From: Alphaproteobacteria bacterium
GTDB lineage: Bacteria; Pseudomonadota; Alphaproteobacteria; Rhizobiales; Aestuariivirgaceae
Assembly: GCA_028868255.1 (NCBI GenBank)
Contig: JAGWUY010000005.1
Span: 1-35,164 of the forward strand
Length of the DNA: 35,164 nucleotides
Direction: 5' to 3'
The notes under the pieces are model-generated. The model was not told the origin of the DNA. It saw nothing but the letters and a program-made list of their open reading frames with translations, and searched no databases. This document shows positions 27,042 to 30,296 of the stretch, in pieces. The first letter of the stretch is position 1. Each line of letters opens with the position of its first letter. Position numbers and translations under genes: made by a program.

Positions 27042-27524
27042 TTAAGCGCGGTGATAGGGATGATTGACCATAATGGTAAGAGATCGGTAAATTTGTTCGA
27101 GAAGCATGATGCGGGCCAACCTGTGCGGCCATGTCATTTGACCCAAGGCAATGATTTGGCTGGCTTTTGAACGGGTTTCCGGGCTGTGGCCATCCGGCCC
27201 GCCTAACAGAAAAGCAATGTCGCCGCCGCCATGATCACGCTGTTTGCGCAGGACAGCGGCAAAGGCTTCACTGGAAAGTGATGTGCCCCGTTCATCCAGC
27301 ACAAAGGTAAAGGCAGAAGGTGGCACGGCTGACCAGAGAATCTTGGCCTCATCATCCATGCGTGATTTGGGCGAGGCTTGCTGACTTTCGCTCCATTCCT
27401 GAATTTTCAAGGCTGTGACACCCGCCTGCTTGCCAAAGCTTTCGATGCGAAAGGCATAATCACTGGCCAACATTTTTTCTGGGCCGATTTTGAGCTTGCC
27501 AATCGCGCCGATGTGCAGACGCAT
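27042..27524 (-). CDS. rlmH: 23S rRNA (pseudouridine1915-N3)-methyltransferase RlmH
   Basis: LDERGTSLSSEAFA, IAFLLGGPDGH, MTWPHRLARIMLLEQIYRSLTIMVNHPYHR. Confidence 0.97.
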   Translation of the reverse strand: MRLHIGAIGKLKIGPEKMLASDYAFRIESFGKQAGVTALKIQEWSESQQASPKSRMDDEAKILWSAVPPSAFTFVLDERGTSLSSEAFAAVLRKQRDHGGGDIAFLLGGPDGHSPETRSKASQIIALGQMTWPHRLARIMLLEQIYRSLTIMVNHPYHRA

Positions 27525-28354
27525 CAGTCTTCGCGGTGGTCCATGGTGGCCCCTTCGGAGGGCGCATGTTCAGACCACAGTTTTTCGAGATTGTAGAAGC
27601 TGCGCACTTCTGGGCGGAAAATGTGAACAATCACATTGCCCGCATCGACCAACACCCAATCCGATTGTTCAAGGCCTTCGACGCGAATGTCTTTCTGTCC
27701 TGATGCTTTCAGCTTTGTTACCAGTTGATCGGCTATGGCGGCCACATGGCGGTTCACCCGCCCTGAGGCGATCACCATGCCATCGGCCATGGACGAGCGC
27801 CCTTCGAGATTGATGGCGATCACCTGTTCGGCCTTGGCATCATCCATGGCATCCAAGATCACATTCATCAAGGGCCAATCGGGGCCTGTATAGCGTGGGG
27901 CCTTAGGGGCCGCGACAATGACTGAAGCGGGTTTCTTGGCGCGTGAGGCTGGCTTTTTGGCCGCAGCTTTTTTGGCGACTGGTTTTTTAGCAGTGGTTTT
28001 TTTCGCTACGGTTTTTTTGGCCGCAACTCTCTTGGCAGCGGGCTTGTTGGCGACGGCCTTTTTTGCCACTGCCTTCTTTGCGGGCGTTTTGACCGCAATT
28101 TTCTTGACGACGACCTTTGCTGGCTTCTTGGCAACAGCTTTTTTTACAGTCGCTGTTTTAACGGTTGGCTTTTTGACGACTTTTTTTACCGCTTTTTTGA
28201 CAATAGGCTTCACCGCCTTGGCTGCTTTTTTGGCAACAGGCTTCACCGCTTTCTTGGCTGGCTTTTTGGCCGCTGGCTTCTTCACAACAGCTTTTTTGGC
28301 AGGGGATTTCTTGGTCGCTGGCTTTTTGGCAGCGCTGGCCTTCACAGTTTTCAC
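27524..28354 (-). CDS. rsfS: Ribosome silencing factor RsfS with long Lys/Ala/Pro-rich N-terminal tail
   Basis: C-terminal core ILDAMDDAKAEQVIAINLEGRSSMADGMVIASGRVNRHVAAIADQLV...VEGLEQSDWVLVDAGNVIVHIFRPEVRSFYNLEKLW; ~145-residue KKPAAKK-type tail. GTG start at 28354 uncertain; the core alone could start at ATG 27868. Confidence 0.9.
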   Translation of the reverse strand: MKTVKASAAKKPATKKSPAKKAVVKKPAAKKPAKKAVKPVAKKAAKAVKPIVKKAVKKVVKKPTVKTATVKKAVAKKPAKVVVKKIAVKTPAKKAVAKKAVANKPAAKRVAAKKTVAKKTTAKKPVAKKAAAKKPASRAKKPASVIVAAPKAPRYTGPDWPLMNVILDAMDDAKAEQVIAINLEGRSSMADGMVIASGRVNRHVAAIADQLVTKLKASGQKDIRVEGLEQSDWVLVDAGNVIVHIFRPEVRSFYNLEKLWSEHAPSEGATMDHRED

Positions 28355-28384
28355 AACGGGCTTCTTTTTAACAGGTTTCTTGCT
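27917..28384. repeat. Low-complexity degenerate repeat encoding the RsfS tail
   Basis: Recurrent ggctttttggc / cttcttggc / ttttttgac-like units on the plus strand, encoding KKPAAKK/AVKK repeats on the minus strand. Confidence 0.8.
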
Positions 28385-28432
28385 CAGGGTCTTATTCCTT
28401 CTGATGTTGGGCGATCCATACCAAAAAACATC

Positions 28433-29038
28433 TCAAGATGAAATGGGTTTGGCAGCATGGCGAATCTGGGTCGAGCTTTCCTTGCGCAGCGGCATGGAAA
28501 TGAACACCCAGGCAGGCGGCTTAGCCAGCGCGAGGCGGCCCGACTGTTCATTGCGCAGGCGGGCATTGCCATATCTTATCGCTGCCTGACCGCCGAGGGC
28601 GCGCACTGAATAGCCAGGCCTGGCCAGAACAGCAATGGGCAGGGTTTCGACAATGGTTGTCCAATTATGCCAGCGGTCGAGATCGCGGAAACTGTCGGCC
28701 CCCATGATCCAGACGAAATGGGCCTGAGACATGGCTTGCTTGAGAGCGTGCAAGGTTTGGGCTGTGTTGCGACTGTGCAATTGCATTTCAAGATTGGTGA
28801 CCTTGAAGCGCGGGTGTTTGGCAATACCGCGCGTTTCATTGAGGCGGGTTTGGTATTCGCCGGTTTCTTTTGTGTCTTTCAGCGGGTTTTGAGGGGACAC
28901 CAGCCACCACACATAATCCAGTTTCAGGCGCTTCAAGGCATAGAGGGCGACCATGCGGTGGCCCTGATGGGCGGGGTTGAAAGAGCCGCCGAAGAGGCCG
29001 ATTTTTTGACCCTCACCAAAAGTTGGAAGTTTCAGCAT
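28433..29038 (-). CDS. nadD: Nicotinate-nucleotide adenylyltransferase
   Basis: KIGLFGGSFNPAHQGHRMVALYALKRL, WIMGADSFRDLDRWHNW, IRYGNARL; ATG at 29038 (MLKLPTFGEG) preferred over the ORF start at 29212, which overlaps proA. Confidence 0.93.
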   Translation of the reverse strand: MLKLPTFGEGQKIGLFGGSFNPAHQGHRMVALYALKRLKLDYVWWLVSPQNPLKDTKETGEYQTRLNETRGIAKHPRFKVTNLEMQLHSRNTAQTLHALKQAMSQAHFVWIMGADSFRDLDRWHNWTTIVETLPIAVLARPGYSVRALGGQAAIRYGNARLRNEQSGRLALAKPPAWVFISMPLRKESSTQIRHAAKPISS

Positions 29039-29045
29039 GGGCGGT

Positions 29046-30296
29046 TCACGGCCTGGTCTGGCCTGTGCCACGGATTTGATATTTAAAAGTGGTGAGTTGG
29101 TTGACGCCCACGGGCCCGCGCGCATGCATCTTGCCGGTGGCGATGCCGATTTCAGCGCCAAAGCCAAATTCGCCGCCATCGGCAAACTGGGTTGAGGCAT
29201 TGTGCAGCACAATGGCTGAATCCACTTCAGTCAGGAACTTTTCGGCAGTTTTTTGATTGGCTGTCACGATGGAATCGGTGTGTTGTGAGCCATAGTTGGC
29301 GATGTGGACGATGGCAGCATCAACACCGTCAACCACGCGCAAAGAGACAATCGCATCAAGATACTCTGTTGACCAATCCTCTTCGGTTACAGGTTTGACG
29401 CGGGGATCAGTGTTTTGCGCAGCAGCATCACCTCGCACTTCGCAGCCTGCATCGATCAGTGTGCTGATGATTGGCTTGAGACTGTTGAGATTGGTGCTGT
29501 CGATAAGAATGGTTTCGGCGGAGCCACACACGCCAGTGCGGCGCATCTTGGCATTGAGCACAATGGATTTGGCCATTTCAGGATCAGCATCCCTGTCGAC
29601 ATAAACATGGCAGATGCCTTCGAGGTGGCTGAACACGGGCACGCGGGCATTTTCCTGTACCCGGGCGACAAGGCTTTTGCCACCACGGGGAATGATCAAA
29701 TCGATGGTGCCACCCAACCCTGTGAGCATATCGCCCACGGCCTCGCGGTCTGTGGTCTGTACCATTTGGATAGCGTGGGGGTCAAGGCCTGCTTCTGTGA
29801 GGCCCTGTTGCAGGCAGGTGATGATGGCCTGCGAAGAGGCAAAACCATCCGAGCCACCGCGTAAAATTGCGGCATTGCCAGACTTCAGGCACAGGCCGCC
29901 TGCATCAGCGGTGACATTGGGACGGCTTTCATAAATGATACCAATCACACCGATGGGCACGGCGATGCGCGAAATTTCCATGCCATTGGGGCGCTGCCAT
30001 TTTTCCAGCAAGCGGCCTACGGGATCGGGCAGGGCGGCGATATCCTCCAGCCCCTTGGCCATGGCTTCGATGCGGGCGGCATTGAGCGCCAGTCGGTCGA
30101 TGAAAGATGATTTCAGGTCCTTGGATTTGGCGGATGCCATATCCTGATCATTGGCGCTTTGAATGGTTTGCGCATGGGCGCGAATGGCCTTGGCCATGGC
30201 CAGAAGGGCTGCATTTTTTTGAGTTTCAGGGGCAAGGGCCAGTGATTTTGCAGCAATGCGAGCGTTTTGGCCCATTGTGATCAATTCAGCATTCAT
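29046..30296 (-). CDS. proA: Gamma-glutamyl phosphate reductase
   Basis: [76 protein letters not shown]. Confidence 0.98.

What the first reader, a model, noticed from the sequence alone, without database searches (positions are those of the whole stretch)
27524..28384. Ribosome silencing factor RsfS carrying a ~145-residue histone-H1-like KKPAAKK tail
The RsfS core is complete at the C-terminus, but the same open frame continues upstream for ~145 residues almost entirely of K, A, P, V and T (KKPAAKKPAKKAVKPVAKKAAKAVKPIVKK...). RsfS normally starts close to the core. AKKP-type tails are known in nucleic-acid-binding proteins (AlgP/histone H1-like, PhaF-type phasins). Fused to a 50S (uL14)-binding factor, such a tail could anchor RsfS to rRNA or the nucleoid, or respond to growth state. 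The in-frame sequence reads on upstream of the GTG (...SKKPVKKKPV), so the true start is uncertain.
Basis: partly seen in the sequence, partly recalled or inferred. Interest (0 to 1): 0.62.

Follow-up and report, generated by a model that had tools for sequence, protein, structure and literature searches.

The report
Tailed RsfS starting at conserved CTG
A bacterial protein that switches off large ribosomal subunits carries a long, strongly positive tail whose translation begins at an unusual start signal (CTG); across Alphaproteobacteria this gene tends to use such unusual start signals that annotation programs miss, which suggests its output is tied to the cell's start-codon proofreading.

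Summary
The frame 27524..28432 (-) encodes RsfS (PF02410, TIGR00090, both over cut-off) behind a 167-residue tail (58 K, 3 R, no D/E; net +61). Translation most likely starts at neither GTG 28354 nor ATG 27868 but at CTG 28387..28385, 8 nt after AAGGA. All 34 genus genomes whose 5' end is assembled have CTG there, behind an AAGGA/GAGGA-type SD. In the same genomes conserved core leucines use mixed codons, and the next gene, rlmH, starts ATG 10/TTG 11/GTG 12. All 34 carry a K/A/P tail (43-235 aa). In close pairs the tail differs most at third codon positions, so it is translated, though it evolves faster than the core. Such tails recur in other Alphaproteobacteria (N-terminal) and in Burkholderiales (C-terminal).

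The start codon is the larger find. Across Hyphomicrobiales, rsfS CTG codons are strongly SD-associated (p=3e-24; one per family 3.5e-9); in other Alphaproteobacteria ATA, CTG, ATC and ATT are, and ATG is not. Several database records use a different start. These are the codon types that IF3 represses in infC and sigR, so I infer IF3-sensitive synthesis of RsfS. Tail function (rRNA/50S tether) is inferred. The tail is not a histone-H1 family member (below every curated cut-off). No paper describing either feature was found.

The parts
27524..28387 (-). rsfS coding sequence, 287 codons plus TGA, from CTG 28387 to TGA 27526..27524
   Evidence: Frame, SD and start conserved in 34/34 congeners; PF02410 and TIGR00090 over cut-off; coordinates checked
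28385..28387 (-). CTG initiation codon
   Evidence: Invariant CTG in 34 genomes while conserved core Leu codons vary; no ATG/GTG/TTG within reach of the SD
28396..28400 (-). Shine-Dalgarno AAGGA, 8 nt before the CTG
   Evidence: Information peak at -13..-9 across 34 genomes
27887..28387 (-). N-terminal polycationic K/A/P/V/T tail, about 167 residues, net charge +61
   Evidence: Composition, and third-position substitution excess in close pairs
27575..27862 (-). RsfS (Iojap/YbeB) domain
   Evidence: PF02410 E=1.3e-32 in genome search; PDB relatives 3ups, 7bl2-7bl5, 6sj5, 4wcw
28352..28354 (-).
   Evidence: GTG is not SD-linked; the conserved CTG lies 11 codons upstream
27042..27524 (-). rlmH, next gene, overlapping the rsfS stop (TGATG); start-codon control
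   Evidence: NF000989 over cut-off; start ATG/TTG/GTG in the genus
28433..29212 (-). nadD frame, upstream gene of the conserved nadD-rsfS-rlmH cluster (longest reading; true start probably downstream of the TTG)
   Evidence: NF000843 over cut-off, domain from residue 65
27918..28589 (+). Antisense 223-aa open frame, a shadow of the K/A-rich tail; not considered a gene
   Evidence: Lists as an ORF only because reversed AAR/GCN codons give Leu/Phe/Ala codons; inference

Best explanation
The gene encodes a bona fide RsfS whose N-terminus is a genus-specific, translated, intrinsically disordered polycation of ~167 residues. Translation begins at a conserved CUG preceded by a good Shine-Dalgarno sequence. 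Mechanism: (1) shown by comparison: start at CUG, tail translated, non-canonical starts typical of alphaproteobacterial rsfS; (2) inferred: as with infC and sigR, IF3 on the 30S subunit rejects the near-cognate codon, so RsfS is kept scarce when IF3 is plentiful and rises when free 30S outnumber IF3, coupling the 50S anti-association factor to the 30S anti-association factor; (3) inferred: the +61 tail binds rRNA on or near the 50S electrostatically, raising local affinity or retention of RsfS, whose acidic core (pI ~4.9) binds uL14. My estimates: start codon 0.95, translated tail 0.93, IF3-sensitive translation 0.5, rRNA/50S tether 0.45.
For: RsfS identity. CTG 34/34 with SD peak, against four conserved core Leu columns each using CTG/CTC/CTT/TTG, and rlmH start ATG 10/TTG 11/GTG 12 in the same genomes. 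Hyphomicrobiales rsfS: in-frame CTG with SD 40/125, p=3.3e-24; one locus per family 14/41, p=3.5e-9. Other Alphaproteobacteria: ATA 14/45 p=1.4e-9, CTG 14/78, ATC 12/74, ATT 6/40; ATG not enriched. Non-alpha rsfS: ATG and TTG enriched, CTG 0/29. rlmH: CTG not enriched, ATA/ATC/ATT 0. SD-independent: 18 further alphaproteobacterial loci in 15 families, plus L007, have no ATG/GTG/TTG ahead of the core. One Rhizobiaceae-like family: CTG with SD in 30 of 32 loci, rlmH ATG in 29 of 31. Caulobacter ribosome profiling: CTG 0.7% of starts, other near-cognates 0.25% (PMC4117421). IF3 represses infC ATT/ATC and sigR GTC starts (PMC5472188). Tail coding signal and +61 charge.
Against: No direct expression or proteome data here; start calls are comparative. 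SD-strong calls exist for only about half of the loci outside the genus. Sister genus g26 has no tail and no well-supported CTG start (L206, L267). infC in this genus appears to start with TTG (13/13 readable loci), so an infC-style feedback loop is not itself shown here. The tail tolerates many replacements and length changes, so it may be nearly neutral. In E. coli rsfS (UUG start) expression peaks in exponential phase (PMC10917681), which does not by itself fit a starvation switch.
Confidence: 0.6

Rival explanations
1. The non-canonical start codon only sets a low constant dose of RsfS; there is no IF3-linked regulation.
For: Weak start codons lower expression generally; RsfS blocks subunit joining, so over-production would be harmful; E. 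coli rsfS also has a sub-optimal codon, UUG (PMC10917681).
Against: Dose could be set by a weaker SD. Instead a strong SD is combined with codon types that IF3 rejects, and in non-Hyphomicrobiales ATA/ATC/ATT/CTG replace each other while ATG is not enriched.
Confidence: 0.35
2. The tail is a near-neutral product of replication slippage in a lysine/alanine-rich low-complexity stretch, tolerated at a permissive N-terminus.
For: Length varies from 43 to 235 aa; many nonsynonymous changes and in-frame indels; tails appear independently in several lineages and at either terminus.
Against: Present in every complete congener, always strongly basic (pI >11); third-position excess shows selection on the encoded residues; recurrent attachment to RsfS suggests use.
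Confidence: 0.35
3. The tail binds DNA (histone H1-like) and places RsfS or ribosomes at the nucleoid.
For: Weak similarity to HC2 and H1-like profiles (PF07382 37 bits; NF038053 25.8 bits).
Against: All below curated cut-offs (40, 80, 135 bits); similarity is compositional; the known partner of RsfS is on the 50S.
Confidence: 0.12
4. Translation starts at ATG 27868 or GTG 28354 and all or part of the tail is untranslated leader.
For: They are the in-frame codons favoured by gene callers.
Against: No linked SD; not conserved among congeners; tail shows coding-type substitution; CTG with SD is invariant.
Confidence: 0.04

Closest known systems
RsfS / Iojap / YbeB ribosome silencing factor (PF02410, TIGR00090)
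   Same: Complete domain, gene next to nadD and rlmH, relatives solved free and on 50S or mitoribosomes
   Different: 167-aa polycationic N-terminal tail; CUG start where E. coli uses UUG
infC (IF3; AUU/ATC start) and Streptomyces sigR (GTC start), IF3-repressed genes (PMC5472188)
   Same: Start codon outside ATG/GTG/TTG, conserved across a clade, missed by annotation
   Different: Here the gene is rsfS and the codons are CTG in Hyphomicrobiales and ATA/ATC/ATT/CTG elsewhere; IF3 dependence not measured
Histone H1-like Hc2 and Burkholderia H1-like proteins (PF07382, NF038052, NF038053)
   Same: K/A/P-rich repeats
   Different: Scores below cut-off; attached to a ribosome factor rather than a free nucleoid protein
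C-terminally K/A/P-tailed RsfS of Burkholderiales (L070; Comamonadaceae L087)
   Same: RsfS plus long basic low-complexity tail
   Different: Tail on the other terminus; independent origin
AlgP / PhaF-type AAKP tails
   Same: Residue composition (own knowledge)
   Different: No phasin or AlgP domain found by Pfam scan

Membership tests
RsfS / Iojap | PF02410 and TIGR00090 domain over curated cut-off | tested here: met
   109.9 bits (cut-off 21.6) and 115.3 bits (cut-off 56.9)
RsfS / Iojap | Neighbourhood nadD-rsfS-rlmH | tested here: met
   same order in Sinorhizobium meliloti
RsfS / Iojap | Binds uL14 and blocks 30S-50S joining | not testable with these tools
   Inferred from family membership
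Histone H1-like (HC2, NF038052, NF038053) | Score over curated cut-off | tested here: not met
   37 of 40; 21 of 135; 25.8 of 80 bits
Histone H1-like (HC2, NF038052, NF038053) | Binds and compacts DNA | not testable with these tools
   None
AlgP / PhaF phasin | Phasin or AlgP domain besides the tail | tested here: not met
   Pfam scan to E=1 shows RsfS, a sub-threshold HC2 match and two chance-level families
IF3-repressed non-canonical-start genes | Start codon other than ATG/GTG/TTG, conserved | tested here: met
   CTG 34/34 in genus; enrichment across Alphaproteobacteria
IF3-repressed non-canonical-start genes | Translation falls with IF3 excess and rises in infC fidelity mutants | not testable with these tools
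   Needs bench work

The most novel reading that the evidence does not exclude
In Alphaproteobacteria the 50S anti-association factor RsfS is under translational control by the 30S anti-association and proofreading factor IF3, through conserved near-cognate start codons (CUG, AUA, AUC, AUU), forming a cross-subunit homeostatic circuit; in one genus RsfS has in addition gained a polycationic rRNA tether.
Probability: 0.45. Interest if true: 0.8.

Novelty: new variant of a known kind. Interest (0 to 1): 0.62.

Why it matters
Few bacterial genes with conserved non-canonical start codons are characterised (infC and sigR are the stated examples). A ribosome silencing factor that uses such codons through much of a bacterial class would link subunit proofreading to subunit silencing, is directly testable in ordinary laboratory strains, and means the N-termini of many database RsfS proteins are wrong. 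The tail is a ready natural case of repeated acquisition of a disordered polycation by a ribosome factor.

Tried and rejected
GTG 28354 and ATG 27868 as starts: rejected (no SD link, not conserved). Histone family membership: rejected (below cut-offs). Assembly error behind the CTG: rejected, since 34 separately assembled genomes and database records of Sinorhizobium and Rhizobium agree. CTG as a chance Leu codon: rejected by the core-Leu and rlmH controls. CTG starts as a general trait of these genomes: not supported by rlmH or by Caulobacter start statistics. Rfam scan of the window: nothing. Using infC as a positive control for non-canonical starts in this genus: it turned out to start with TTG. 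A family search around an ATA-starting genome returned only that one genome, so within-family conservation of ATA was not tested by that route. Literature searches for an RsfS N-terminal extension or start codon found only the E. coli UUG note.

Full report
Observation. On the minus strand the frame between TGA 28435 and TGA 27524 is open for 302 codons and ends in a full RsfS domain (PF02410, 27575-27862; TIGR00090 115 bits). It lies in a proB-proA-nadD-rsfS-rlmH-envC-like-ctpA-like gene row (the ctpA-like assignment is from the translation alone).

Where translation starts. Only CTG (28387..28385) fits: AAGGA sits 8 nt upstream, and no ATG, GTG or TTG is within reach of it. The genus has 37 genomes; 36 have the domain. 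One of these is cut by its contig end (G014) and one is a fragment (G009). In all 34 others the homologous codon is CTG, behind an AAGGA/GAGGA-type SD, while surrounding bases drift. Four conserved Leu columns inside the core use CTG, CTC, CTT and TTG in the same genomes, so CTG is not fixed because leucine is. The next gene, rlmH, starts with ATG 10, TTG 11 and GTG 12 times in those genomes, so start codons are otherwise free to change. In several relatives (L111, L112, L113, L122) the frame closes only four codons above the CTG.

The tail is protein. From CTG the protein is 287 residues; the first 167 hold 58 K, 3 R and no acidic residue (net +61), while the core has pI 4.9. Tail length runs from 43 to 235 residues in the genus, always basic. 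Between close pairs, differences fall mostly on third codon positions (for example L010/L012: 4, 3 and 32 at positions 1, 2 and 3), although the tail changes faster than the core. Frames stay intact through insertions and deletions. Sister genera: g27 (L172) has a short basic extension and also a CTG; g26 (L206, L267) has neither tail nor a well-supported CTG start. Similar N-terminal tails occur in other alphaproteobacterial families (L210, L227, L236, L238, L249, L250, L254, L255 and others), and long C-terminal ones in a Burkholderiales and a Comamonadaceae genome (L070, L087). The tail is therefore a recurrent addition to RsfS, not a single oddity.

The start codon is a class-wide pattern. 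I took rsfS loci from the same order (109 loci, 41 families) and from the class (110 loci, 75 families) and asked which in-frame codons ahead of the core lie 5-9 nt behind a match of five or more bases to AAAGGAGGTG. In the order only CTG stands out strongly: 40 of 125, p=3.3e-24; with one locus per family 14 of 41, median p=3.5e-9. In the rest of the class ATA (14/45, p=1.4e-9), CTG (14/78, p=2.5e-6), ATC (12/74, p=3.7e-5) and ATT (6/40, p=5e-3) stand out; ATG does not (3/72). In rsfS outside Alphaproteobacteria ATG and TTG stand out as in ordinary genes, and CTG is 0/29. For rlmH in the same loci CTG is not enriched (1/35 and 0/28) and ATA, ATC and ATT are zero. A few rare codons reach nominal significance in these tables (CTC in order rsfS, p=8e-3; CTA and CTT in order rlmH), so single weak p-values should not be over-read. 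A test that ignores SD: 18 further alphaproteobacterial loci in 15 families, and L007 in the genus, have no ATG, GTG or TTG anywhere ahead of the core. In one Rhizobiaceae-like family sampled over about 30 genera, 30 of 32 loci show CTG with SD; one is cut by its contig end and one has TTG at the homologous place; rlmH is ATG in 29 of 31. The class sample was partly enriched for long open frames and supplemented with loci chosen for family spread.

Public annotation. In a Sinorhizobium meliloti record the annotated rsfS start is an ATG without SD, 26 codons above a CTG behind GGAAAGGAAAAACC. Qingshengfaniella is annotated at a GTG at the edge of the domain, 26 codons below a CTG behind GGAGGACCAAGTC. 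Two Rhizobium records show the same kind of miss. E. coli rsfS is TTG, as also stated in PMC10917681.

Mechanism. [quoted passage not shown] infC (ATT/ATC) and Streptomyces sigR (GTC) are documented examples, and sigR was misannotated in all available streptomycete genomes (PMC5472188). In Caulobacter, CTG makes up 0.7% and other near-cognates 0.25% of profiled starts (PMC4117421), so the rsfS pattern is far from background. RsfS binds L14 on the 50S and blocks joining with the 30S (PMC13159725). I therefore propose that IF3 holds RsfS synthesis low, and that synthesis rises when IF3 is short relative to 30S. Shown: codon, SD, conservation. Inferred: IF3 dependence and physiological purpose. 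Against a full feedback picture, infC in this genus seems to start with TTG (13 of 13 readable loci). For the tail, electrostatic holding on rRNA is the simplest function; DNA binding and near-neutral slippage are the rivals.

Novelty. The RsfS domain and IF3-sensitive starts are known kinds. Their combination, the spread of near-cognate starts over alphaproteobacterial rsfS, and the tail were not found in the papers searched. That library omits most subscription journals, so prior notice elsewhere cannot be excluded.

Noticed in passing
L341 (ATA), L177 (ATA), L188 (ATT), L364 (ATC), L361 (ATT): rsfS in non-Hyphomicrobiales Alphaproteobacteria with AUA/AUU/AUC start candidates behind strong SDs; AUA starts are hardly ever reported.
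   Followed up: partly
L396 and 12 other congeners, infC: infC in this genus seems to start with TTG, with ATA, ATT, ATG or CTG as third codon; not the AUU-type start of E. coli.
   Followed up: partly
L070, L087: RsfS of a Burkholderiales and a Comamonadaceae genome carries a 120-140 aa K/A/P tail at the C-terminus.
   Followed up: partly
L292, L294, L295, L296: Annotated rsfS starts in Sinorhizobium, Qingshengfaniella and Rhizobium records miss a well-placed CTG with Shine-Dalgarno.
   Followed up: yes
G013:C6:13607-14611 and G013:C7:8171-8914: A congener has two further long HC2-like low-complexity frames (657 and 435 aa), so K/A/P repeats occur in other proteins of the genus.
   Followed up: no
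window 27522-27524 and homologues: rlmH start codon changes freely between ATG, TTG and GTG within the genus.
   Followed up: yes
G038:C187 and G038:C101: One genome of the order has RsfS matches in two pieces on different contigs (assembly split or broken gene).
   Followed up: no
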